A stretch of DNA of 64,000 nt, from contig CAMPHY010000002.1 of the NCBI GenBank assembly GCA_946886125.1, positions 1 through 64,000 of the forward strand. Direction: 5' to 3'. This DNA is from an uncultured Candidatus Saccharibacteria bacterium. GTDB lineage: Bacteria > Patescibacteria > Saccharimonadia > Saccharimonadales > UBA6022. The notes beneath the pieces were generated by a model. That model was not told the DNA's origin. It ran no database searches and saw only the letters and a list, made by a program, of their open reading frames with translations. Shown one piece after another: positions 4,748 to 38,236 of the stretch (its first letter is position 1; the number at the start of each line of letters is the position of its first letter). The translations under genes were made by a program, and so were the position numbers.

Positions 4748-5968
4748 TTAGCGTACTTCGATAAACGTATGCGCGTGCCCACTAGCACCAGCACGACCAG
4801 TTCGGCCAATACGGTGTACGTAGTCTTCGTACGTTTGCGGGGTGTCAAAATTAATAACATGAGACACATTTGGAATATCAAGTCCACGCGCCGCTACATC
4901 GGTCGCCACCAATACACGAACACGTTCATCTTTGAACTGCTTCAAAGCACGTTGTCGTTGTGACTGGTTTTTATTACCGTGAATTGCAGCAGATGGAATA
5001 CCACTATTGTCAAGGTGATCAGACAGACGCTGTACACCAAATTTCGTCTCACCGAAAACAAGTACTTTTCCATAAGCTTCAGTACGAAGCATATCGGTGA
5101 GTAGCTCAATTTTGTGTGTCTTATCACGTGCTTCAATAACATCTTGCTCAACGTGCTCACTGGTCTCGGCGGTACGTACAGAAACAGTCTCAGGGTCGTT
5201 CAAAAATGTATTTACCAGTGCCTGAATATCTGGCGTAATAGTAGCACTAAAGAATAGCGTCTGACGTTCGGCCGGCATTTCATTCACGATTTCACGAATG
5301 TCTGGCAAGAAGCCCATGTCGAGCATACGGTCAGCTTCATCAAGTACAAGCGTTGTCATGTTCTTAAGCTGCAATACGCGGCGCCTCATAAGATCTTTAA
5401 GACGACCGGGTGTTCCAATGATAAAGTGCGGGCGACGTTTGAGGTCACGAATTTGACGTTCAATATTTGCACCACCAACAATCAATGTTGAGTACAAACC
5501 AAGCCCCTTGCTAAAGTCACGGAACTGTTCGTCGATTTGCTGAGCCAACTCACGAGTTGGGGCAACAATAAGCACACTTGGTCGGAGCGTGATACCGCTT
5601 TGACGTTCAATAATTGGCAACAAGAATGCCGCCGTTTTACCTGTACCAGTGTTGGCAAGCCCAATCACGTCTTTGCCTTCAATAATATGAGGAATCGCTT
5701 GATCTTGGATTGCGCTTGGTGTCACATAGCCTTTATTGGCAATGTTATGATGTAGCTGTGAGCCAAATGGGAAGTCGGCAAACTTGTGCTTTGCTTCGTA
5801 TACCACTTCGTCTTTTTTCAAAACAGCTTTATTAATAAACTTTGATGGATGAATATACTTCTTTGCTGGTCCGCGGTTGCCGCCACCACGACGTCCACCG
5901 CCGCGATTAAATCCGCCTTGTGGGCGTCCTTGATTAGGGCGTCCGCCCCTTCGTTGTTGAAATGCCAT
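4748..5968 (-). CDS. DEAD-box ATP-dependent RNA helicase
   Basis: 406 residues from the ATG at 5968 (MAFQQRRGGRPNQG). The N-terminal ~40 residues are rich in Arg-Gly and probably bind RNA. The core motifs appear in order: ANTGTGKT (Walker A), PTRELA, TPGR, DEAD, SAT, then HRIGRTGRAG near the C-terminus. It ends shortly after the core without the C-terminal extension of DeaD/CsdA, so it is closer to the RhlE/SrmB type. A longer reading frame upstream to 6112 is not used because AAAGGG sits about 10 nt before the chosen ATG. A leader of roughly 150 nt follows a TATAGT box near 6121, as is common for cold-regulated helicases. Confidence 0.92.
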   Translation of the reverse strand: MAFQQRRGGRPNQGRPQGGFNRGGGRRGGGNRGPAKKYIHPSKFINKAVLKKDEVVYEAKHKFADFPFGSQLHHNIANKGYVTPSAIQDQAIPHIIEGKDVIGLANTGTGKTAAFLLPIIERQSGITLRPSVLIVAPTRELAQQIDEQFRDFSKGLGLYSTLIVGGANIERQIRDLKRRPHFIIGTPGRLKDLMRRRVLQLKNMTTLVLDEADRMLDMGFLPDIREIVNEMPAERQTLFFSATITPDIQALVNTFLNDPETVSVRTAETSEHVEQDVIEARDKTHKIELLTDMLRTEAYGKVLVFGETKFGVQRLSDHLDNSGIPSAAIHGNKNQSQRQRALKQFKDERVRVLVATDVAARGLDIPNVSHVINFDTPQTYEDYVHRIGRTGRAGASGHAHTFIEVR

Positions 5969-6153: not shown

Positions 6154-6972
6154 TTAGTCAAGCTTAATATTCACGGAGATTGCCCGATGATCTGAACCGC
6201 CGTCGGCTGCTATGCGATAATCTGACATCTGCAATACTGCTGTTGCAAGAATATGATCAATCGCAAGTAGCCGTATACTAGGCAGCCATTCAAAACCAAT
6301 CATTTTAGGCGTTGCCGTTGCACGATGTCGCGGATCTGCATCGTGCAATAATAGTCCTTTCACTAACACTTCCATCGTTTCTCCAAACGCCATTTCGTGT
6401 ACGCGCCTACCTATACCACCCATCACACCAGGCAATCGTTGCATCATCATACCAACTACCGGCTTTGCAAGCACTCGACTGATGCCTGCCGCGTGCATAG
6501 CATTGAAATCACCCATAAGCACTACTGGCACCGATACGTCAATCCATCGTATTAGTGCCTCAACCTGCTCAAGTCGTTGCCATTCCGAACGATCATCGAG
6601 ATGTACGCCGACTAGCTGTAGTATCTGACCATTCGTAGACTCCTTGACGCTCACCACTGGCATAGAGCGATCACCAAGACGAATCGTTTTTTGCGCCACG
6701 TATGACACGCGACTAATATAAACACTGTGTGTTGCTACTGCACTATGTAGATCACGCTGCTGTTCATCATACGAAACTTCGTATATCTTATATCCGAACT
6801 GTGTTAACCGCTTTTGTGCTGTCGCATCCATCATGCCCTTATAAGCTTCTGCCAGAAACACTACATCAGCATCAAGCAACAGAATACTATCAACGATTTT
6901 TAGCGGCACACCACGACCTGTTGCTTTTGTTGAACTCAACCGCCCTTCTACATTCCACGACGCAATTCGCAT
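6154..6972 (-). CDS. endonuclease/exonuclease/phosphatase (EEP) family protein
   Basis: 272 residues with the EEP metal-dependent hydrolase fold: SWNVEG at the N-terminus (Asn metal contact), an acidic residue in FLAEAYKG, VGVHLDD, LMGDFNAM in the middle, and DHILA...SDHRAISVNI at the end (the catalytic Asp-His pair). The family includes exonuclease III, DNase I and phospholipid or sugar phosphatases; no signal peptide is visible, so it probably acts in the cytoplasm. The substrate cannot be told from the sequence. It follows the membrane protein at 6982-7725 by 9 nt and is likely co-transcribed. Confidence 0.85.
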   Translation of the reverse strand: MRIASWNVEGRLSSTKATGRGVPLKIVDSILLLDADVVFLAEAYKGMMDATAQKRLTQFGYKIYEVSYDEQQRDLHSAVATHSVYISRVSYVAQKTIRLGDRSMPVVSVKESTNGQILQLVGVHLDDRSEWQRLEQVEALIRWIDVSVPVVLMGDFNAMHAAGISRVLAKPVVGMMMQRLPGVMGGIGRRVHEMAFGETMEVLVKGLLLHDADPRHRATATPKMIGFEWLPSIRLLAIDHILATAVLQMSDYRIAADGGSDHRAISVNIKLD

Positions 6973-6981
6973 TTATCACTG

Positions 6982-7725
6982 TTACCAATAGTATTGGTTG
7001 TCAATCGAACGCTCGCGGGCTGTTTCTTTGCGACTAAAATCATTTGTCGTATAGCCATCGTGTGCTTGAACTGCGACGGTAATGATTGTAAGTAAAACGA
7101 CAAGACTCGCCAAACCCACTAATACAAGAGAAAAAAGCCGACTGACATTACGCCCTTTAACAATTCGATACATAAAATACGATGCTAGCCCTGCAACAAA
7201 AGCAGCAAGTAATGCTGGGACAAACACCTGCATATATAGGTCAGCGACAGATGACTCCGAACCTATCAGAAGAAGTGATGATATCAGAACCGTCACAAGT
7301 GTAATAACACTAAGTAATAACTGACTTACTATAGCCGCAAACCCTACGTATGTGATTACCTTGTAACTCAAACGCGCTGTGTATGCACTACGGCTATGAA
7401 GTGCCCGACTAACTCGTGCAAAACAAATGAATGCAAGCACTGCCGTAATCAGACCTGCTAACGATAGCCATAACGTTCCTACATACCCTGAACCGACGCT
7501 CGCAAACCAGCTAAGTGGTGCGCCAACAGTTGCAAGCTTGTCGTCCATAATGGCAAATACCATCATTAACGCCGCACTTAACAATGTGACAGTCGCCACA
7601 CTTGCCCCTATGGCAACAATATACTCAAAAGTTAGAAAGCTACTGCGAGCTCGGACTATACGACCGAGTGCTTGTTGTGGTGATACGCCAGTTATTCCTG
7701 TTGCCTTTTGTGGTTGATGGTTCAT
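6982..7725 (-). CDS. multi-pass membrane protein of unknown function
   Basis: 247 residues with five likely membrane segments (about residues 34-60, 76-103, 124-150, 167-187 and 196-220) and short polar ends. The layout resembles small four- to five-helix proteins common in Patescibacteria, but I do not recognise a family. Start supported by AAGGGAG 8 nt upstream, with a TATACT box near 7755. Operon partner: the EEP hydrolase. Confidence 0.7.
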   Translation of the reverse strand: MNHQPQKATGITGVSPQQALGRIVRARSSFLTFEYIVAIGASVATVTLLSAALMMVFAIMDDKLATVGAPLSWFASVGSGYVGTLWLSLAGLITAVLAFICFARVSRALHSRSAYTARLSYKVITYVGFAAIVSQLLLSVITLVTVLISSLLLIGSESSVADLYMQVFVPALLAAFVAGLASYFMYRIVKGRNVSRLFSLVLVGLASLVVLLTIITVAVQAHDGYTTNDFSRKETARERSIDNQYYW

Positions 7726-7787
7726 GACTATAACTCCCTTAGATAGGTTTAGTATAAGCCATGCATCCTATTTCGACCAACTTTTGA

Positions 7788-9761
7788 CTATAATTTGGCG
7801 CGAATATCGGCAATCATATCTCGTAGCTCAGCCGCCTTTTCAAACTCCAAATTCGCACTCGCCAGCTCCATTTGCCCACTCAATTCCTTAATGAGCGACT
7901 TATACTCGTCTTTTGGAATTTTCTTCAAATCAAGCTTCTTTGGCTTGTCCTTTTCCTTATCTGGAATAATCGCTCGTAGACCCTCTCCAATTTCTTTTGA
8001 GACACCAGTTGGTGTTATACCATGCTCAGTGTTGTATGCTTCCTGAATACCGCGCCGTCGATTTGTTTCATCAATGGCAGCCTGCATAGAACGTGTAATT
8101 CTGTCGGCATACATATAAACCTTTCCGTGCTCATGACGAGCTGCACGGCCTATCGTCTGGATCAAAGCACTTTCACTGCGCAGGAAGCCTTCTTTGTCGG
8201 CATCCATTATCGCCACCATGCTCACTTCCGGGAGATCAAGCCCTTCACGCAGCAAGTTAATTCCAACAAGCACGTCGTACACCCCTAGTCGAAGATCCTT
8301 TAAAATGTCACCACGCTCTAGCGTATCAACTTCACTGTGAATGTAAGCCGTCTTAATATTTATTTCTTGTAAGTAAGTCGTTAAGTCTTCCGCCATACGC
8401 TTAGTGAGGGTCGTAACAAGCACACGCTGTCCAGCAGTTACCCGGTCGTTAATTTCAGAAACTAAATCGTCAATCTGCCCCTTTGTAGGACGAATAATAA
8501 TTTCCGGATCGAGTAGGCCAGTTGGACGAATAACCTGTTGCGCAGGTGCAGGGCTATGCGATAATTCATATTCACTTGGAGTTGCCGATACATAAATAGC
8601 CTTATTGATATGACGGTCAAATTCCTGAAAGGTGAGAGGACGGTTATCAAGGGCGCTCGGAAGACGGAAGCCATGCTCAACAAGCACCTCTTTTCGCGCA
8701 CGGTCACCGTTGTACATGCCACGAACCTGCGGTAGTGTCATGTGGCTTTCATCAACAAGGAGCAAGAAATCATCTGGGAAATAATCCATTAATGTTGCCG
8801 GTTGCTCTCCTGGTTCTCGGTTGGTTAAATAACGACTATAATTTTCAATTCCCTTAACGAACCCTGTTTCTTCCAGCATTTCAATATCATATTTAGTTCG
8901 CTGTGAAAGACGCTGAGCCTCAAGTAATTTATCGTGCTTCTCAAACCATTCAATTCGTTCTTCAAATTCTTTTTTGATGTTTGCAATTGCACGTTCAAGC
9001 TTTTGCTTCGGCGTGACGTAGTGAGAACTTGGAAATACTTGTAGTTCATCAGGTTCGCCACTGATTTCGCCCGTCAGCGGGTCGATACGAGTTATGCGGT
9101 CAACTTCATCGCCAAAAAATTCTATACGGTATGCAACGTCACTACCCGCAGGAAAGACATCAACCACATCCCCCTTCACCCTAAATGTACCACGCTGAAA
9201 ATCAATATCATTACGCTGATACTGAATGTCGGTTAAAAGACGAATGAGCTTATCTTGTTGACGCCGTTCACCTTTTTTAATTGTGATAGACATTGCCGAA
9301 TAATCATCTGGCGATCCGATACCATAAATACAGCTCACACTGGCAACAATAATCGTATCTCGCCTTGTTAATAATGCCATCGTCGCCGCATGACGCAAAC
9401 GATCAATCTCATCATTTATTTTTGAGTCTTTTTCGATGTACGTATCGCTACTCGCCATATACGCTTCGGGTTGGTAATAATCAAAATAACTTACAAAATA
9501 ATGTACTTCATTCTCAGGAAAATAGTTTTTGAATTCACTATACAGCTGAGCAGCTAAGGTTTTATTGTGCGCAAGCACAAGCGTCGGCGCCTGCCGATCC
9601 TGAATGACATTAGCCATGGTAAAAGTCTTACCAGACCCGGTTACACCTAAAAGAGTTTGCTCGCGCTCACCCTGATCAAGCCCTTCGATCAATTGCGCAA
9701 TTGCACTCGGCTGGTCTCCAGTCGGTAGATAGGTGGTTGCTAGCTTAAATTTTTGGCTCAT
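7788..9761 (-). CDS. uvrB: UvrABC system protein B
   Basis: UvrB is the damage-verifying helicase-like subunit of nucleotide excision repair. Walker A GVTGSGKT near residue 45, the beta-hairpin region with YYQPEAYM, the [10 protein letters not shown] motif, QTIGRAARH (motif VI) and a C-terminal UVR motif ([15 protein letters not shown]) are all present; 657 residues is a normal length. Two consecutive ATGs exist; the second (9761) is favoured because TATAAT lies 7 nt before it, the spacing seen for other genes in this window. Single-gene unit. Confidence 0.97.
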
Positions 9762-9768
9762 CATATCT

Positions 9769-9774
9769 ATTATA
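9769..9774 (-). promoter_or_regulatory. -10 box of uvrB (leaderless start)
   Basis: TATAAT on the minus strand, 7 nt before the second ATG of uvrB; decides the start. Confidence 0.6.
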
Positions 9775-9806
9775 CTACGAGCCGTATATTCTCAGTTGCC
9801 TGGTAA

Positions 9807-10415
9807 TTAGCCACGGCCGACGCGCTTGGCACTCAAGTGGCTGTCAGTACCATCGTCAGAGAACCCAACATACTTTTCATCTAACGCTTCAATCACTTTT
9901 TTCACTAAACGACTTGGATTTGTGTCATAAATAATATCTTTCGCGCCAGGTGCTTCGATATTTTGAAGTAATGTCGGCGTATAGTCAGCAAGACCACCGC
10001 TCCCCAGTAGTACACCACATACTTTTCGACTTTCAAGCGCTGTCGAAAGCTCATGGAGACTACCCATACGACCACCTACTGTTATGATTGCATCGCTACT
10101 GCGCACCAGGTGAACATCACGTCCTACATATTCCATACCCGTAAAGTTAATATAATCAAACTCTTTTGTTGGCAATTTGTACGTAGCAACGTGCTCGCGG
10201 AATGAACTTGCCGGCGAGAAGCCAACCGAGACACCCTTGCGACTCTTGACGCTAAAAGCCCCCATTGCAGCATAATGCGGCAGTCCTACGGTCGCGCCGG
10301 TGGTCAGTGTTTTTCCCTGCTCGGCAATCGCCTTACCAAGGTCATAAGCAAGTTGGTGTGATGCCTGCACCGTGTCTCCACTGGCCGCACCGGAAACACA
10401 TATTTGATATTTCAT
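9807..10415 (-). CDS. SLOG/LOG-family Rossmann nucleotide-binding protein
   Basis: 202 residues. The N-terminus ICVSGAASG, the TTGATVGLPHYAAMGA segment and IITVGGRMGSLHELSTAL match the lysine-decarboxylase-like (LOG/SLOG) fold, where the GGxxGxxxE loop binds a nucleotide or nucleotide-sugar. In LOG enzymes the motif is PGGxGTxxE; here it is VGGRMGSLHE, so cytokinin-type hydrolysis is not assured. It is the last gene of the carbon operon, 2 nt after the long PfkB-type kinase, suggesting a role in nucleotide or sugar-nucleotide sensing. Confidence 0.75.
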   Translation of the reverse strand: MKYQICVSGAASGDTVQASHQLAYDLGKAIAEQGKTLTTGATVGLPHYAAMGAFSVKSRKGVSVGFSPASSFREHVATYKLPTKEFDYINFTGMEYVGRDVHLVRSSDAIITVGGRMGSLHELSTALESRKVCGVLLGSGGLADYTPTLLQNIEAPGAKDIIYDTNPSRLVKKVIEALDEKYVGFSDDGTDSHLSAKRVGRG

Positions 10416-10417
10416 TC

Positions 10418-11926
10418 CTATAGTTCCTCCGTATGGTAATAATCTGGTGCTTGCTCAAGGTATGTCTCTAGTTCAGGCTGACGCAGCAAACCTGCCTGTG
10501 CCCCGAGCTTCTGCACGACGCTCATCGAGTTAATAGGCGCCCACCTTAGTGCCGTTTCCAGCGATTCGCCCATGGCAAGGGCCGCCGTCACTGTAGAGGC
10601 AAATGCGTCACCTGCGCCTGTGCGATCATAAGGCGCAGCAGGATCGGGATAATTTGGCATTTTCAAAATCTTTACGCCATCTGAAGCATACGCACCATCT
10701 GGCCCATCGGTAATGACGACAATATTCGGTCCAAGCGCATGCAATCCCTGGGCGAGTTCGGCGATTGACTTCAGGCCTTTGCCTGTTACAAGCGCTGCTT
10801 CTTCACGGTTCATGAAGACAATATGCGAACGAGCGTAGACTGCCGCTAATTTTTCGACACCCCATGAAAAGTGGAAGGTTCCCGGCTGGAAGACCAGCTT
10901 CGTTTCCGGATGCTTCTCTAGATACGCCAGCATATCTTCATGCAGCTGCCAGGCGGATTCGCTAATCATTGATAGATACAGCCAGTCAGGTACTTCTGCT
11001 GGCTCCTGCCAATTGTAAGCGTAATCTTCGTACTTAATAAGGATAGTTCGATCAGCCCCATACCTAAGTGCGTAATGATAGTTTGATTTAAAGCCATCCT
11101 GCACTGAAACAGCACGCGTATCAACATGCTCGGATGCAAGATATTTCATCGAGTCTTTACCCGGCTGATCATCTCCCAGAAATGCCATAAGTCCCGCGCG
11201 TAATCCTAAACGAGTAAACGCTACGGCAGCATTAGCCGAATTACCTACCGCTTGGACAATCTCTACACTTTCATACGGTGGCTTACTGCCAAATTCCATA
11301 CTCAAACGCTTGTTACCCTCTTCGTCTACCGTCACCTCCGCCTGATCGTCACGCAATTTGATAAAGGCATCTGTCACTATATCTCCAATAGCAAGTATGT
11401 ACGGCGTAGTTGTATCCGCCCTCTTTGGACGACTAATCGTCTCGTAATGCTCATCGTCCTCAACAACAAGGCCTGCATCTTTCGCAAGTTGTTGCGCAGC
11501 AGCAACGTCAACTTGCGAATGATCGAGATAACGACCCATAATTTCACCACGAAGCGCACGCTGCCCATGACTAATAATCCGATGCTCGTATGCAAGATCA
11601 TGGTGTGCATTTTCAATTACATCAATTAAATTAAACGATATCACCTGGCGATCATCGAAGGTCATCAAGACATAGTCGGTTTTAGATAGCACGTCTTCAG
11701 CCGCCCCCTGCTTAGCGCAAGCGCGCAAGCTCTGATACAACTCTTTTCCTGTTGTGTTAGCTGGTTCTAAGCCAAGCTGGCGCATGACATCATGCGCAGT
11801 GTGTGTAATGTCGGCAATGATTCGCGTATCAACGCCGCTGTGACCAGTTGCTTTTTCTAGCTGGCGTAACCCAACACTAAAAAGAGGCTCTTTAGCATCA
11901 AGTAATGTTTGTAAAAATTTAGCCAT
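10418..11926 (-). CDS. PfkB-family kinase with a unique ~170-residue N-terminal domain
   Basis: 502 residues. From about residue 180 (YILAIGDIVTDAF) onward it is a ribokinase/PfkB sugar kinase, with GNSANAAVAFTRLG (substrate loop) and DRTGAGDAF (anion hole and catalytic Asp) near residue 437. The first ~170 residues are helical, without a family I recognise, and are not part of normal PfkB proteins. It sits next to a second, standard-length PfkB kinase and downstream of class II aldolase, so phosphorylation of a sugar phosphate or nucleoside is likely, with the extra domain perhaps regulatory. AAGGAG lies about 12 nt before the ATG. Confidence 0.82.
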   Translation of the reverse strand: MAKFLQTLLDAKEPLFSVGLRQLEKATGHSGVDTRIIADITHTAHDVMRQLGLEPANTTGKELYQSLRACAKQGAAEDVLSKTDYVLMTFDDRQVISFNLIDVIENAHHDLAYEHRIISHGQRALRGEIMGRYLDHSQVDVAAAQQLAKDAGLVVEDDEHYETISRPKRADTTTPYILAIGDIVTDAFIKLRDDQAEVTVDEEGNKRLSMEFGSKPPYESVEIVQAVGNSANAAVAFTRLGLRAGLMAFLGDDQPGKDSMKYLASEHVDTRAVSVQDGFKSNYHYALRYGADRTILIKYEDYAYNWQEPAEVPDWLYLSMISESAWQLHEDMLAYLEKHPETKLVFQPGTFHFSWGVEKLAAVYARSHIVFMNREEAALVTGKGLKSIAELAQGLHALGPNIVVITDGPDGAYASDGVKILKMPNYPDPAAPYDRTGAGDAFASTVTAALAMGESLETALRWAPINSMSVVQKLGAQAGLLRQPELETYLEQAPDYYHTEEL

Positions 11927-11942
11927 GGTTATTATATGCTCC

Positions 11943-12908
11943 TTAGAATGGTTTTTCGCTCATTGGCATGTCGTGCAACACCGTACCTTTATGTAGAATA
12001 CCGGCTTTAGCGCCAATTTTTGTCACAACTGAAGTAGAGTTGGCACTTGCGAAAACAAGCGCTTCTTTTAACGATTTGCCTTGCGCCCATTGACTTAGAA
12101 ATCCCGAGCCAAAAGCGTCACCAGCTCCAGTACGGTCTGTCACCGGTACGTCTTCATACATACCAGCACGCACAATCGTCTGGCCATCCGATGCAACGAC
12201 ACCATTTGGACCATCACTTATAATCGCTACCGGTACGTAGTGAAGCGCATGACGCGTCAACTCTTCCAGCTCGCTCCCCTCAACAATCACCTGAATTTCT
12301 TCACGATTCACACAGAGAACATCAACATCTTCAAGCAAGCTTTTTAGCTTTTCTGGCTGCGATAATTCACCCTTGCCTGGATTGAACATAATCTTAATGC
12401 CGAACCGTTTTGCCTGGGTAAATATACTGTTGATAGCCTCCATACTCCCTGCCATGCTTGATACATAGAGCCATTGGGCGTTTGTTTGCGATAAATCAAA
12501 ATGCTTTGCATCGTAATGTGTCGACGCTCCACGGTATGTCAAAATGGTCCGTTCGCCATTCGGAGCAAGCAGGAGTACCGAATAGCCCGTGTTATATTTT
12601 TCAGAATAACTTACATGCGAGGTGTCAACGCCTTCATTATCGAGATCATCAAGCACCGCCTGGCCAGCTGGATCATGTCCAATCGTGCCCATAAACTGCG
12701 CATGAAGTCCCGCTCTTGCAAAGGTAACTGCCGCATTCGTCGCGCCACCACCTGTACTAAAATTGATGTTATTAACATCTGCTTTTGCGCCCAATTCAAG
12801 CTTCATGAAAACGTCATGAGGGTCATCGGTGACAGGCTTAAACTCATCACTATGGCTCAAAAAAACATCCTGAACAGCTGCGCCTATGGCTAAAATTTTA
12901 TGCGACAT
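11943..12908 (-). CDS. PfkB-family carbohydrate kinase
   Basis: 321 residues, normal ribokinase-family length. N-terminal ILAIGAAVQDVF, the GGGATNAAVTFARAG substrate loop, GERTILTYRGAS and the C-terminal DRTGAGDAFGSGF signature with catalytic Asp are present. Six nt after the aldolase gene and 16 nt before the long kinase. Because the operon has aldolase and pentose-phosphate enzymes but no PfkA-type 6-phosphofructokinase is visible, one of these two kinases may fill that step; that is an inference, and ribose, fructose or a nucleoside are alternatives. Confidence 0.85.
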   Translation of the reverse strand: MSHKILAIGAAVQDVFLSHSDEFKPVTDDPHDVFMKLELGAKADVNNINFSTGGGATNAAVTFARAGLHAQFMGTIGHDPAGQAVLDDLDNEGVDTSHVSYSEKYNTGYSVLLLAPNGERTILTYRGASTHYDAKHFDLSQTNAQWLYVSSMAGSMEAINSIFTQAKRFGIKIMFNPGKGELSQPEKLKSLLEDVDVLCVNREEIQVIVEGSELEELTRHALHYVPVAIISDGPNGVVASDGQTIVRAGMYEDVPVTDRTGAGDAFGSGFLSQWAQGKSLKEALVFASANSTSVVTKIGAKAGILHKGTVLHDMPMSEKPF

Positions 12909-35527: not shown

Positions 35528-36085
35528 TTAACCAATGCTAATAAAGCAAAGTGTTTTGCCTGCTGAGTTAGCAGCAGTATATCCGGTTGTTGGCGTTACG
35601 CCCCCTTCCCATGTACTCATAACGCCATCAACACCGCACTTTTGACTTGTACCATTTAACCAATAAAATATCATTGCAGGCTTCACCTGTCCGTTATATG
35701 TACGGGAAGATGTGTGGTTGTATATAATCCCATTTGCTACTGAGCCGGCATTAGGTACGCTCGAGGGCGGAGCGCCGACGGTCGCTATGTTTGTATTGAA
35801 AGTACTATTACTATTATCCACTCCACCAGTGTCACGAACACAACCCGATATTGTAGTTACACAAACGTTTGAAGCTCCCGTGTAAGGGTACTCGCCTTTT
35901 AATGCATGATACGCCTGAAGCGATTTCATCGTTTGACTCGCAGCGTTAACAATTGCCGCATTGTTCGCTCTCTGCTGTATGCCGTTGTAGGCAACGATTG
36001 TAATCGCGGCCAAAATACCAATTACCACAATGACAATAAGAAGTTCGACGATCGTGAAACCTGACTGTTTATGTTTTGCCCACAT
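35528..36085 (-). CDS. type IV pilin-like prepilin
   Basis: 185 residues: leader MWAKHKQSG, then FTIVELLIVIVVIGILAAITIV and a globular domain with four cysteines and a Gly/Ser/Thr-rich end. The first ~28 mature residues are nearly the same as in the pilin at 4058-4654, and both have YPxTG near residue 60, so they are probably paralogues. A TATACT box at 36097-36102 sits 11 nt before the ATG. A separate single-gene unit. Confidence 0.87.
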   Translation of the reverse strand: MWAKHKQSGFTIVELLIVIVVIGILAAITIVAYNGIQQRANNAAIVNAASQTMKSLQAYHALKGEYPYTGASNVCVTTISGCVRDTGGVDNSNSTFNTNIATVGAPPSSVPNAGSVANGIIYNHTSSRTYNGQVKPAMIFYWLNGTSQKCGVDGVMSTWEGGVTPTTGYTAANSAGKTLCFISIG

Positions 36086-36235: not shown

Positions 36236-36448
36236 TTAAAAAAAGTATTCTGAAATGAATCCTATTATGATAATCATGAGGAGTAAGATTAATGCGATTA
36301 GGACAAACTTAATTCCACTATGTAATTTAGGGTAATATTTCATAAATACTTTATTTAATATAAAACCAAATAGAATTACAATTATTATTCCAATAGCAAT
36401 TTGACTAATTAATATCCATATAAAATTTGGGTCAAAAATCGAAATCAT
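36236..36448 (-). CDS. 70-residue two-helix membrane protein
   Basis: Two long hydrophobic segments (about residues 9-33 and 46-69) rich in Ile, separated by a basic loop (KVFMKYYPKLHSG). The gene is clearly more AT-rich than its surroundings, which suggests transfer. TATAAT lies 6 nt before the ATG. Last gene of the tRNA-Gln-linked array. No family recognised; toxin-like or phage holin-like proteins have this shape, but nothing else supports that. Confidence 0.6.
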   Translation of the reverse strand: MISIFDPNFIWILISQIAIGIIIVILFGFILNKVFMKYYPKLHSGIKFVLIALILLLMIIIIGFISEYFF

Positions 36449-36454
36449 AATCGG

Positions 36455-36460
36455 ATTATA
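36455..36460 (-). promoter_or_regulatory. -10 box of the 70-residue membrane protein (leaderless start)
   Basis: TATAAT on the minus strand, 6 nt before the ATG. Confidence 0.6.
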
Positions 36461-36512
36461 TCATAACGCTCATAGTAAGCTGTGTATAGTGGATTTGCTC
36501 AGGAAGACTCAA

Positions 36513-36986
36513 CTAGTTATTCTCTTCGAAATCCTTTAATATTTGTAAATATTGCTGCTGCACCTCAGATGGAATACGCGGGTGAACCAACGGTGTAATT
36601 CGACCGTCGTTCTTTATGATTTTATTTATCTCATCAAAATAAAAGCCATCTAGTGTTGCGACAAACAAATACGACGGATTCCATGAAGCATGCATCTTTT
36701 CCGCTATCAGCTTTATATTAGCGACATTAATACTACGACGGTATTTAACTTCAACAAGCCTTACTTCTTTTGTTTCCTGATTTATAACCGCAAAATCTGG
36801 AGCGGTTCTCAGCGTTTCTATAATTGGATCTTCGTGCCCATGATTATATTGAAGTAAATCGGGAATGACTTTCTCGTAGCCAAATTCTAGCACTGTAAAG
36901 CATTCCGCGTTACGTAACATTTGAGAGAATATCGTCTCTGCAACTCGACCCTTTACTAGGTTTTTTGTAAATTTTGAAGCGTTCAT
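36513..36986 (-). CDS. PD-(D/E)XK-type nuclease-like protein
   Basis: 157 residues. GRVAETIFSQML near the N-terminus (conserved Glu), APDFAVI in the middle and VRLVEVKYRR give the spacing of PD-(D/E)XK nucleases and Holliday-junction-resolvase-like enzymes (Asp then E-x-K). Such small enzymes occur in restriction, phage and repair contexts. No methylase or specificity partner is adjacent. TAAAAT lies 7 nt before the ATG. Part of the tRNA-Gln array. Confidence 0.7.
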   Translation of the reverse strand: MNASKFTKNLVKGRVAETIFSQMLRNAECFTVLEFGYEKVIPDLLQYNHGHEDPIIETLRTAPDFAVINQETKEVRLVEVKYRRSINVANIKLIAEKMHASWNPSYLFVATLDGFYFDEINKIIKNDGRITPLVHPRIPSEVQQQYLQILKDFEENN

Positions 36987-36993
36987 GCTTGTT

Positions 36994-36999
36994 ATTTTA
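36994..36999 (-). promoter_or_regulatory. -10 box of nuclease-like gene (leaderless start)
   Basis: TAAAAT on the minus strand, 7 nt before the ATG and just after the preceding terminator. Confidence 0.5.
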
Positions 37000-37010
37000 T
37001 CAAATAAAAT

Positions 37011-37028
37011 AGACCTACGATGAGGTCT
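37011..37028 (-). terminator. terminator of the gene at 37133-37477
   Basis: 6-bp stem AGACCT/AGGTCT followed by ATTTTATTT on the minus strand. Confidence 0.65.
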
Positions 37029-37047
37029 GTTTTATACATAAACTCTA

Positions 37048-37076
37048 TGGCTGGGGCTAGTGGATGTGTTTCAGGA
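37048..37076 (-). repeat. tRNA-end-like 29-nt repeat, copy A
   Basis: Matches copy B (37570-37598) at 28 of 29 positions. On the minus strand it ends CCCCAGCCA, like the CCA end of the tRNA-Gln gene, and is followed by a spacer and a terminator. Confidence 0.85.
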
Positions 37077-37132
37077 CAAAATGCAATCTTATAGCTTGGA
37101 CGTCAATGATTTATCAAGTTTTCGTCGGCTAA

Positions 37133-37477
37133 TTATGTGCTGATTTTACCACCTTGAATGACTATCCGAACTCCTGATTCGGGCTCAAACTCCAAGTACT
37201 GGGAAATCTTCTCGTTCAACTTTGTTATTTCCTCATTGCGTAATACCGTCTTACGCGCATTTTTAGTAGTCCATACCTCATTGACCCAAACGCTGAAAGG
37301 ATCTTCATCCTCATTGTTAGCGGACGACATAATCACCGTGCCGTAATAAAACGACAAACAATCATCTTCTTTTTTCAGTATGAGAGTATATTCATCTAAA
37401 ATTTTAATTACTGCGTCGGTATAGCCAGGCTTACCGTAAGTATTGAGTATTCTCGAGACGCCGAAGTGATTTTGCAT
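37133..37477 (-). CDS. hypothetical protein in the tRNA-Gln array
   Basis: 114 residues, soluble and acidic, with no recognised family. It has a predicted alternating beta/helix pattern (DEYTLILKKEDDCLSFYYGT). TACACT lies 7 nt before the ATG and a terminator follows, so it is a self-contained unit. The gene carries the tRNA-end repeat copy A in its 3' untranslated part. Confidence 0.6.
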   Translation of the reverse strand: MQNHFGVSRILNTYGKPGYTDAVIKILDEYTLILKKEDDCLSFYYGTVIMSSANNEDEDPFSVWVNEVWTTKNARKTVLRNEEITKLNEKISQYLEFEPESGVRIVIQGGKIST

Positions 37478-37484
37478 ATAACTA

Positions 37485-37490
37485 AGTGTA
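37485..37490 (-). promoter_or_regulatory. -10 box of hypothetical gene (leaderless start)
   Basis: TACACT on the minus strand, 7 nt before the ATG. Confidence 0.5.
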
Positions 37491-37532
37491 CCATTGAGTT
37501 ATATAACATAAACCACTAATCGAAATAAAAAT

Positions 37533-37550
37533 AGATCTCGTGTGAGACCT
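37533..37550 (-). terminator. terminator of the kinase-like gene
   Basis: Stem AGGTCT/AGATCT (one G-U pair) followed by ATTTTTATTT on the minus strand. Confidence 0.65.
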
Positions 37551-37553
37551 ATT

Positions 37554-37577
37554 TTAAGCATAATCATCTTGGCTGGG
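37554..37577 (-). repeat. 24-nt direct repeat of the tRNA-Gln 3' flank
   Basis: Identical over 24 nt to 38146-38169, which covers the tRNA-Gln 3' end and its trailer. The two copies lie 592 bp apart and bracket the kinase-like gene, as left and right attachment sites would. Confidence 0.8.
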
Positions 37578-37598
37578 GTTAGTGGATGTGTTTCAGGA
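37570..37598 (-). repeat. tRNA-end-like 29-nt repeat, copy B
   Basis: One mismatch to copy A; overlaps the 24-nt tRNA-Gln flank repeat, so the array boundary and the tRNA end share sequence. Confidence 0.85.
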
Positions 37599-37605
37599 AA
37601 TAACT

Positions 37606-38106
37606 CTACTTCATCATCCGTGCAAGGATGTCATCTATAATTTCGTCAACTGATCTATCTGCCGGGATAAGTACTAATCCTTGCTTTTCAAATCTCGCTT
37701 GTTTATTGTAATGAACGGCAATCGCTTGTTCCTTTTCCTGTGCTGTGCGTAAATGTGCGTGGCTATCGAGCCGCTTTTGTAATGTTTCGGCACTAATGGT
37801 AAGGGCAAAGATTTTATCAAAAAGCGGGTAGAATTTTTGCTGATTACCAACGATAGCGCCAATGAAAATATCACTCTCACTCTGTAGTAAATTCCGTAAG
37901 CCAGCCTCTTGCCAGTTCCAGATATATTTTTTCCAGTTCACAACACCCTCTGGCCACGGTACTGGTTTCCCTGTCTCTTGTTCCTCTAGTTTTGTTATCT
38001 CGGGCATATCATCCGTGTTGAATGCTTGGAAGCCGCGTTGCTTCAATGATTCTATGACTGTCGTTTTGCCGCTACCAGGTCGTCCAGTAATTAGGTATTT
38101 TCCCAT
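37606..38106 (-). CDS. P-loop kinase-like protein
   Basis: 166 residues: YLITGRPGSGKTTVIESLKQRG is an intact Walker A loop, followed by FNTDDMPEIT, an ISAETLQKRLDSHAHLRT lid-like region and a C-terminal helix. It resembles small nucleoside or shikimate-type kinases and predicted AAA-type kinases; the substrate is unknown. TATAGT lies 6 nt before the ATG, immediately after the tRNA-Gln terminator. The gene is bracketed by the 24-nt tRNA flank repeats. Confidence 0.7.
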   Translation of the reverse strand: MGKYLITGRPGSGKTTVIESLKQRGFQAFNTDDMPEITKLEEQETGKPVPWPEGVVNWKKYIWNWQEAGLRNLLQSESDIFIGAIVGNQQKFYPLFDKIFALTISAETLQKRLDSHAHLRTAQEKEQAIAVHYNKQARFEKQGLVLIPADRSVDEIIDDILARMMK

Positions 38107-38112
38107 ATGCTC

Positions 38113-38118
38113 ACTATA
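38113..38118 (-). promoter_or_regulatory. -10 box of kinase-like gene (leaderless start)
   Basis: TATAGT on the minus strand, 6 nt before the ATG. Confidence 0.55.
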
Positions 38119-38124
38119 ACAAAA

Positions 38125-38145
38125 AGACCCCTACGAAAGGAGTCT
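38125..38145 (-). terminator. terminator of tRNA-Gln
   Basis: Stem AGACTCC.../...GGGGTCT followed by TTTTTG on the minus strand, 16 nt after the tRNA CCA. Confidence 0.75.
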
Positions 38146-38161
38146 TTAAGCATAATCATCT

Positions 38162-38236
38162 TGGCTGGGATGGAGGGATTCGAACCCCCGAATGCTGGTA
38201 CCAGAAACCAGAGCCTTACCACTTGGCGACATCCCA
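38162..38236 (-). tRNA. tRNA-Gln (anticodon CTG)
   Basis: Complete cloverleaf of 75 nt with encoded CCA: acceptor TGGGATG/CATCCCA (U1-A72 is typical of tRNA-Gln), anticodon loop TTCTGGT, canonical T-loop TTCGAAT. In a GatCAB organism it is probably charged with Glu and then amidated. Its 3' end and trailer are duplicated downstream. Confidence 0.95.

What the first reader, a model, noticed from the sequence alone, without database searches (positions are those of the whole stretch)
36236..38236. A tRNA-Gln-linked array of single-gene units with repeated tRNA-end sequence
Downstream of tRNA-Gln lie four small genes in the same direction (P-loop kinase-like, hypothetical, PD-(D/E)XK-like, two-helix membrane). 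Each has its own -10 box 6-7 nt before the ATG. The kinase-like and hypothetical genes are each followed by a 29-nt sequence ending in CCCCAGCCA (28 of 29 positions shared), a spacer and a hairpin terminator. The kinase-like gene is also bracketed by an exact 24-nt direct repeat: the tRNA 3' end plus trailer (38146-38169) and 37554-37577. Direct repeats of a tRNA 3' end are the usual mark of site-specific integration (established for islands). Here the pattern repeats for small units, like stepwise capture of promoter-gene-terminator cassettes. No integrase is in the window, so it would act in trans or be lost.
Basis: partly seen in the sequence, partly recalled or inferred. Interest (0 to 1): 0.8.

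Follow-up and report, generated by a model that had tools for sequence, protein, structure and literature searches.

The report
tRNA-anchored gene cassette array in Saccharibacteria
Behind a glutamine tRNA gene of a tiny Saccharibacteria genome sits a row of one-gene cassettes, each ending in the same short recombination site; related genomes carry different cassettes at the same spot, which looks like an integron-like gene-collecting system probably run by serine recombinases.

Summary
The window is Saccharibacteria. Behind tRNA-Gln(CTG) lie three units, each with P' arm, terminator, -10 box, gene and site, plus a fourth gene. The site is an 18-nt arm (CCTGAAACACATCCACTA) plus nCCCCAGCCA, the tRNA 3' end. 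A relaxed site pattern occurs 73 times in 30 of 362 genomes of the class, against 1 reversed-control hit. Of 76 distinct sites, 54 have tRNA-Gln upstream on the same strand and 0 have it downstream. Orthologous loci carry different genes. In two related genomes the same 3.1-kb element starts at the tRNA CCA in one and at a cassette site 1,353 bp away in the other, with the break at the core. So cassettes join at the tRNA 3' end. Two integrative elements at tRNA-Gln and one at a cassette-like site end in the same arm; each encodes a large serine recombinase (LSR) of one clade; a fourth member lies beside a cassette array. The LSR role is inferred; only 4 of the 30 site-bearing genomes showed such an LSR. 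My searches found no earlier description.

The parts
38162..38236 (-). tRNA-Gln(CTG); its 3' end CCCAGCCA is the integration target
   Evidence: ARAGORN, Rfam
38145..38161 (-). P' arm AGATGATTATGCTTAAA behind the tRNA; the same arm follows tRNA-Gln or sites in other genomes (e.g. L157, L172, L169, L269)
38121..38144 (-). terminator hairpin of unit 1
   Evidence: read
38113..38118 (-). -10 box TATAGT, 6 nt before the ATG of gene 1
37606..38106 (-). cassette 1 gene, P-loop kinase-like, 166 aa
   Evidence: AAA_28 29.1 bits, cut-off 27
37570..37597 (-). cassette site 1: CCTGAAACACATCCACTA-ACCCCAGCCA
37553..37569 (-). P' arm AGATGATTATGCTTAAA of unit 2 (second copy of the 25-nt repeat with 37570-37577)
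37485..37490 (-). -10 box TACACT, 7 nt before the ATG of gene 2
37133..37477 (-). cassette 2 gene, hypothetical, 114 aa
37048..37075 (-). cassette site 2: CCTGAAACACATCCACTA-GCCCCAGCCA
36994..36999 (-). -10 box 7 nt before the ATG of gene 3
36476..36503 (-). decayed cassette site 3
36455..36460 (-). -10 box TATAAT, 6 nt before the ATG of gene 4
   Evidence: read
36236..36448 (-). gene 4, 70 aa, probable membrane protein (from its sequence); no recognisable site behind it

Best explanation
The array is a row of mobile, single-gene, separately expressed cassettes inserted one after another at the 3' end of tRNA-Gln. Each unit runs P' arm, terminator, -10 box, gene, P arm, core. The core (CCCAGCCA) equals the tRNA 3' end, so each insertion rebuilds the tRNA and leaves a new site next to it; newest cassettes lie nearest the tRNA. 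Shown by sequence: site, layout, anchoring, different cargo at orthologous loci, a junction at the core. Inferred: recombination is done by a large serine recombinase clade whose own elements sit at tRNA-Gln or at a cassette-like site and end in the same P arm; it would act mostly in trans or have been lost. How cassettes arise and travel is unknown.
For: Spread and specificity: CCTGAAACACATCCACTANNCCCAGCCA with up to 2 mismatches gives 34 matches in 16 of 392 genomes, reversed control 0. The relaxed pattern gives 73 in 30 of 362, control 1. Anchoring: 54 of 76 distinct sites in held loci have tRNA-Gln upstream on the same strand within 12 kb, 0 downstream; of the 19 without a tRNA upstream, 13 have under 5 kb of upstream DNA. 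Layout: of 52 intervals up to 1.1 kb, 36 hold one forward ORF filling half or more and 9 a reverse one; in the 36, 21 leaders are 54-62 nt; a TANNNT box lies 4-8 nt before the ATG in 22 of 31, letter-shuffled mean 7.4. Junction: G181 has tRNA-Gln then an LSR element; G312 has tRNA-Gln, two cassettes (1,353 bp), then the same element, 86% identical over 3,091 bp, starting at the core. Nine further rows shift sequence from a tRNA end to a site or tRNA-end copy: seven at tRNA-Gln (three on L165, two on L169) and two at tRNA-Asn (both on L260). Six of the seven involve a short segment of 163-204 bp that itself recurs behind tRNAs, so they weigh less. Enzyme: two LSR elements run from tRNA-Gln to an arm matching 17 of 18 positions; a third lies between two such sites; these and the LSR beside the G123 array form one supported clade with R8, S10 and DRxxR in place. 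The four genomes with a full-length LSR of at least 59% identity (392 genomes) all carry sites (30 of 362).
Against: Of the 30 site-bearing genomes only 4 appear with an LSR of at least 59% identity. I cannot tell that all other 26 were in the sample, which scored at most 3 candidates per genome and did not list 287 genomes without a match. A fifth genome, G182, has a broken relative at tRNA-Pro (71% over the first 105 residues) and no site. In two of the four LSR genomes (G286, G262) a site counted is the end of the LSR element itself. The LSR element of L269 ends in a diverged arm. The P' arm of LSR elements (ATTTTGACTTT...) differs from that of most cassettes. Six site-bearing genomes (G122, G146, G168, G233, G312, G375) have a second tyrosine recombinase match; by coordinates none lies beside a site, the nearest about 40 kb away (G122). 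Symmetry of the site is weak (11 of 25). Some tRNAs ahead of sites are followed by a plain terminator instead of a P' arm (L153, L156, L166, L167, L179, L185), and 19 of 76 sites lack a tRNA upstream. The arm alone gave 51 matches in 26 of 392 genomes but also 8 reversed-control hits. The window's own genes were not found as cassettes elsewhere: kinase relatives in 5 of 40 genomes and the gene-3 relative in 1 of 40 show no convincing site nearby. Clearly shared cargo between genomes is rare. No circle or excision was seen. No genome is held for the window.
Confidence: 0.68

Rival explanations
1. A tyrosine recombinase moves the cassettes: the chromosomal Xer, as Xer enzymes move dif-like modules elsewhere (recalled), or a second tyrosine recombinase present in some genomes.
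For: 21 of 29 genomes tested have at most one PF00589 match, and some site-bearing genomes have exactly one (G002, G004, G008, G320); 6 of 21 site-bearing genomes have a second. The trailer ATTATGCTTAAA recalls a dif half-site (from memory, not tested).
Against: A PF00589 match is found in 28 of 29 genomes whether or not sites are present, while sites are patchy (30 of 362). In 4 of 7 loci looked at the Xer gene lies next to an undecaprenyl-diphosphatase-like gene (named from its sequence). No tie to tRNA-Gln or to the arm was seen, while LSR elements carry the arm at their own end.
Confidence: 0.14
2. The units are shrunken remnants of ordinary integrative elements that piled up at tRNA-Gln by tandem integration and lost everything but one gene; single-gene cassettes as such were never mobile.
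For: LSR elements of 4.4 and 9.5 kb use the same tRNA and arm; several intervals are longer and ragged; site 3 of the window is decayed.
Against: Uniform compact build in many genomes (21 of 36 leaders of 54-62 nt, one gene, stop codon within 20 nt of the site or inside the arm in 21 of 36), functionally assorted cargo, and two compact cassettes between tRNA and an LSR element that is directly at the tRNA in a relative do not look like independent decay.
Confidence: 0.14
3. The repeat is a transcript-end or RNA-processing signal, spread by duplication and inherited vertically.
For: It follows genes, ends in CCA and is followed by a terminator.
Against: Gene content differs at orthologous loci, a two-cassette difference between relatives ends at the core, and seven tested sites do not fold better than shuffles as DNA (RNA folding not tested).
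Confidence: 0.03

Closest known systems
Integron gene cassettes (and CALIN, arrays without an integrase)
   Same: Tandem rows of compact one-gene units with a shared recombination site at the 3' end of each gene; entry at one anchored end; diverse small enzymes as cargo; rows without a nearby recombinase. Integron features from passages of PMC8618304.
   Different: No IntI found: the five tyrosine recombinases examined are Xer-type and score under the integron-integrase cut-offs. Seven sites tested show no attC-like fold. Anchor is a tRNA 3' end, not attI. The units bring their own promoter and terminator; of integron cassettes only some have their own promoters.
Staphylococcal cassette chromosome (SCC) with Ccr large serine recombinases and pseudo-SCC
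   Same: Serine recombinase of the same broad kind (CcrA model 62.8 bits, far under its cut-off of 700); insertion at a conserved housekeeping gene; direct repeats; elements without their own recombinase (passages of PMC10581047).
   Different: Target is a tRNA gene, not rlmH; units are mostly 0.3-1.1 kb with one gene, against 18.2 and 26.6 kb for the SCC elements of that paper.
tRNA-borne genomic islands
   Same: Insertion at a tRNA 3' end that keeps the tRNA whole.
   Different: According to the Islander abstract (PMC4383910, search listing) these are catalysed by tyrosine integrases; here LSR genes lie antisense at tRNA ends, and units are single genes in rows.

Membership tests
Integron | IntI-type tyrosine recombinase | tested here: not met
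   Five tyrosine recombinases, all from site-bearing genomes (G001, G004, G008, G146, G312), score 126.7-148.4 bits on TIGR02249 (cut-off 265), highest on XerC/XerD models though under their cut-offs; over its cut-off of 220 is NF040815, archaeal XerA, whose description also reads integron integrase. Second tyrosine recombinases and the window's genome were not tested.
Integron | attC sites that fold into hairpins | tested here: not met
   Seven sites folded as single-stranded DNA: z from -1.25 to 1.46 (the eighth sequence given, from L269, was not a site and is left out).
Integron | tandem single-gene units with a shared site behind each gene | tested here: met
Integron | cassettes enter at one anchored end | tested here: met
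   L162 against L235; here the anchor is tRNA-Gln. Loss in the other genome would look the same.
SCC / Ccr elements | Ccr recombinase | tested here: not met
   L165 LSR: CcrA 62.8 of 700, CcrB 46.5 of 900, CcrC 34.3 of 900 bits
SCC / Ccr elements | insertion in rlmH | tested here: not met
   54 of 76 sites lie behind tRNA-Gln; rlmH itself was not searched for
Large serine recombinase integrative elements | Resolvase, Recombinase and zinc-ribbon domains; catalytic R8, S10, DRxxR | tested here: met
   domains for the L165 LSR, residues for four LSRs; not for the window
Large serine recombinase integrative elements | recombination of these sites by the enzyme | not testable with these tools
   needs a bench assay
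tRNA-borne genomic island | direct repeat of the tRNA 3' end at the far junction | tested here: met
   8-9 nt core shared by tRNA and sites

The most novel reading that the evidence does not exclude
Saccharibacteria own a second kind of integron: a gene-cassette platform evolved independently, run by serine recombinases that read tRNA 3' ends, with ready-to-run cassettes (terminator, promoter, gene, site) shuffled between these very small genomes. LSR clades at tRNA-Asn, -Trp, -Gly, -Lys, -Pro and -Ser may each serve their own cassette pool.
Probability: 0.4. Interest if true: 0.92.

Novelty: new variant of a known kind. Interest (0 to 1): 0.82.

Why it matters
Integrons are the standard example of a bacterial gene-cassette platform, and they rest on one tyrosine recombinase family and folded attC sites. 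A look-alike built on tRNA 3' ends and probably serine recombinases would show that cassette capture evolved more than once, and would give the reduced, host-dependent Saccharibacteria a defined route for taking up single genes. Because the units bring their own promoter and terminator, they could be expressed wherever they land. The recombinase and the sites are short and can be tested in ordinary laboratory strains.

Tried and rejected
Phage or plasmid source of the cassettes: exact scans of viral contigs with two site patterns gave 0; an LSR search there gave one 39%-identical relative on a viral contig without a tRNA or site in the 21 kb held; in plasmids 100 records match the window region, and the 20 listed do so only over about the first 80 bases of the query, which are the tRNA.

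Shared cargo with the window: none of the four genes had a relative in the loci held; relatives of genes 1 and 3 found in 40 genomes show no convincing site within their 3.5-kb loci. Genes 2 and 4 were not searched in whole genomes.

attC-like folding: not found in seven sites. Two-fold symmetry of the site: weak, not used as support.

Defence function for the window genes: only weak PADLOC matches of the kinase (about 17 bits or less).

Rfam for the short non-coding element behind tRNAs: only tRNAs found in five loci at gathering scores.

Literature: eight searches of an open-access library. As judged from titles and abstract beginnings, nothing listed describes such arrays, but three searches listed only 12-20 of 38, 314 and 572 papers, and PMC8550312, which holds the words Saccharibacteria and serine recombinase once each, was not opened. 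Passages were read in three papers. Most subscription papers and all bioRxiv preprints are outside the library.

Rows dropped or uncertain: L306 was dropped because it overlaps L269 (76 to 73 intervals). In one search near-copies were removed, which dropped L224 and L235, both at tRNA-Gln, and a 250-nt limit left out L276, so 24 of 40 is a low count; the 40 LSRs are those I fetched, not a random sample. Single arm matches include chance hits (8 control hits). Pfam was run on 30 of the 34 cassette proteins listed.
Full report
WHAT IS IN THE WINDOW. The window is a Saccharibacteria chromosome: of the 80 TrmD loci kept, 72 have titles naming Saccharibacteria, Patescibacteria or an unnamed bacterium and 8 are Bacillota; the best is a Saccharibacteria genome at 82% identity. 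tRNA-Gln(CTG) lies at 38162-38236 (-). Four small genes follow on the same strand. Genes 1 and 2 are each followed by CCTGAAACACATCCACTA-nCCCCAGCCA, and gene 3 by a decayed copy that is the third-best match in the whole window. The last nucleotides, CCCAGCCA, are the 3' end of the tRNA; the 18-nt arm before them is not tRNA sequence. After the core comes a second arm, AGATGATTATGCTTAAA, identical behind the tRNA and behind gene 1, then a hairpin terminator, a -10 box 6-7 nt before the ATG, and the next gene. The unit is therefore P' arm, terminator, promoter, gene, P arm, core.

THE SITE IS WIDESPREAD AND SPECIFIC. In 392 genomes of the class the 28-nt site (up to 2 mismatches) has 34 matches in 16 genomes, and its reversed control 0. 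The arm alone (up to 1 mismatch) has 51 matches in 26 of 392 genomes of the order, with 8 reversed-control hits, so some of its single matches are chance. A relaxed pattern, AAACACATCCACTAnCCCCAGCCA with up to 3 mismatches, has 73 matches in 30 of 362 genomes, control 1. Two arm subtypes appear, TTCCTGAAACACATCCACTA and AAAAGTTCTAAACATATCCACTA. Rows of several sites occur, for example in L152, L164, L167, L185, L293 and L294.

IT IS ANCHORED AT tRNA-Gln. Of 76 distinct sites in the window and held loci, 54 have tRNA-Gln as nearest upstream tRNA on the same strand within 12 kb (33 within 3 kb), three have another tRNA (one is tRNA-Trp 627 bp away, where the core reads CCCTTGCCA; two are tRNA-Gly over 8 kb away), and 19 have none; 13 of these 19 have under 5 kb of upstream DNA. 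None has tRNA-Gln downstream on the same strand within 12 kb. Arrays stand behind both tRNA-Gln(CTG) and tRNA-Gln(TTG).

THE UNITS ARE CASSETTES. After dropping L306, 73 intervals between successive marks remain; 52 are up to 1.1 kb. Of these, 36 hold one forward ORF filling half or more of the unit, and 9 a reverse one. In the 36 the median unit is 590 bp, 21 leaders are 54-62 nt, and in 21 the stop codon lies within 20 nt of the AAACA motif or overlaps the arm. A TANNNT box lies 4-8 nt before the ATG in 22 of 31 units against a mean of 7.4 in letter shuffles. Of 30 cassette proteins scanned with Pfam (of 34 listed), 15 had a match at 1e-4: NUDIX (3), P-loop kinase (2), GNAT, NADAR, DUF952, methyltransferase, nucleotidyltransferase, trypsin-like, DUF2268, Exo_endo_phos, MazG and tRNA_edit. 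Clearly related cargo in different genomes is rare: a NUDIX cassette in G312 and G001 (71% identical) and a kinase in G257 and G339 (42%), besides weaker NUDIX similarities; a further pair (74%) lies in one genome, G312.

SAME PLACE, DIFFERENT GENES. The genes upstream of the window's tRNA-Gln are conserved next to tRNA-Gln in several relatives (L001, L005, L006, L015, L021, L165, L169, L177), while none of the window's four downstream genes was found in any locus held. In L021 the tRNA is followed directly by a terminator, and that genome, G010, has no site.

JUNCTIONS. The clearest case is a pair of related genomes. In L235 (G181) tRNA-Gln ends at 8243 and a serine-recombinase element follows at once. 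In L162 (G312) the flanks are 74-81% identical, tRNA-Gln ends at 5125, two cassettes follow, and the same element (86% over 3,091 bp) begins at the core of the second site, 1,353 bp from the tRNA. Either two cassettes were inserted in front of the element or they were removed; in both cases the joint is the core. A comparison of segments behind tRNA-Gln, -Trp and -Asn gave nine further rows in which sequence that starts at a tRNA end in one genome starts at a site or a tRNA-end copy in another. They are weaker and not independent: seven are at tRNA-Gln, three of them on L165 and two on L169, and six of the seven rest on a short segment (163-204 bp) that itself recurs behind tRNAs; two are at tRNA-Asn, both on L260, and involve a full tRNA-end copy, not the arm.

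THE LIKELY ENZYME. Of 29 genomes searched for PF00589, 21 have at most one match (20 have one, that of G269 partial; G232 has none) and 8 have more (G009, where the two are neighbouring fragments, G012, and six site-bearing genomes). By coordinates the second matches of these six lie on other contigs than the sites or, in G122 and G146, tens of kilobases or more away. Five of the proteins were examined and are Xer-type; in 4 of 7 loci the Xer gene lies next to an undecaprenyl-diphosphatase-like gene. Large serine recombinases are common: 23 of 29 genomes match PF07508. Many lie antisense at the 3' end of a tRNA, with the reading frame running into the tRNA: 24 of 40 distinct fetched LSRs, a low count, for Gln, Asn, Trp, Gly, Lys, Pro and Ser. 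Two elements at tRNA-Gln, in L165 (4.4 kb) and L224 (9.5 kb), end with the cassette arm at 17 of 18 positions plus the core. L168 has a relative between a cassette-like site and a full site, with no tRNA called there, between genes that look like trigger factor and clpP by my reading. In L269 a relative lies between tRNA-Gln and a row of sites of the second arm subtype, though its own far end is a diverged arm. These four form one supported clade, 99/99, together with a broken relative at tRNA-Pro (L279), and have R8, S10 and DRxxR in place (residues for Bxb1 from a passage of PMC12884075). The four genomes with a full-length LSR of at least 59% identity all carry sites, although in G286 and G262 a site is the end of the LSR element itself. 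In G146 an array at tRNA-Gln lies about 115 kb from the LSR, so it would act in trans there.

WHAT SPEAKS AGAINST. Only 4 of the 30 site-bearing genomes appear with such an LSR (one search lists neither all genomes without a match nor more than three scored candidates per genome); G182, with a broken relative, has no site. The P' arms of LSR elements and cassettes differ. Several arrays stand behind a tRNA that still has a plain terminator, so not every row fits simple growth at the tRNA. Symmetry of the site is weak. The window's own genes were not found as cassettes elsewhere, and no movement was observed. The genomes are one per species and many are drafts; the array of L001/L190 is in a complete genome (CP011211.1).

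COMPARISON. It works like an integron but fails the tests for one that could be run: no IntI among the five enzymes examined, no folding site among seven. It shares recombinase kind and housekeeping-gene targeting with SCC, but the enzyme is not Ccr and the units are far smaller. I file it as a new variant of a known kind, a cassette platform, and keep the stronger reading as the novel case. Searches showed no earlier description among the papers listed. On rechecking, the count of genomes with at most one tyrosine recombinase fell from 24 to 21 of 29, for which I moved the main confidence from 0.70 to 0.68 and the tyrosine rival from 0.12 to 0.14.

Noticed in passing
behind tRNA-Gln or a site in L003, L010, L016, L165, L166, L169, L171, L179, L224: A short non-coding element (about 150 nt plus a terminator) in two sequence types sits behind tRNAs and in many copies ends with a second copy of that tRNA's 3' end; 17 and 13 distinct matches at E 1e-4 in held loci, one behind tRNA-Ser in L310. 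No Rfam match beyond tRNAs in five loci. It may be a gene-less mobile unit or an unknown RNA.
   Followed up: partly
L165, L219, L220, L222, L230-L236, L269-L288: Large serine recombinases antisense at the 3' ends of many tRNA kinds in Saccharibacteria (24 of 40 fetched), although tRNA integration is usually credited to tyrosine integrases.
   Followed up: partly
L285 (G256) and L288 (G067); L225 (G016) and L231 (G320): Nearly identical LSRs in different species genomes (branch lengths about 0.003 each, and 0.011 and 0), which suggests recent transfer.
   Followed up: no
L257 or L283 against L260: At tRNA-Asn a 1.5-1.6 kb segment that starts at the tRNA end in two loci starts 1,425 bp away in a third, behind a full copy of the tRNA 3' end, so tRNA-Asn is also a stacking site.
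   Followed up: no
L293 (G217) 7934-11996: Six sites with the same arm and core, AAGTACGTCCACTATCCCCAGCCA, in one array, which points to recent growth or homogenisation.
   Followed up: no
L167 (G146) 6168-9062: Two successive units each hold a 471-aa type IV pilin-like gene ending 10 nt before the site, a possible cassette duplication.
   Followed up: no
L168 2559-8611: LSR element with no tRNA called beside it, between genes that look like trigger factor and clpP, flanked by a cassette-like site GTTCGAATCCACTAGCCCCAGCCA and a full site.
   Followed up: partly
window 35528-36085: A pilin-like gene (N_methyl) lies just beyond the array; no site was recognised between gene 4 and it.
   Followed up: no
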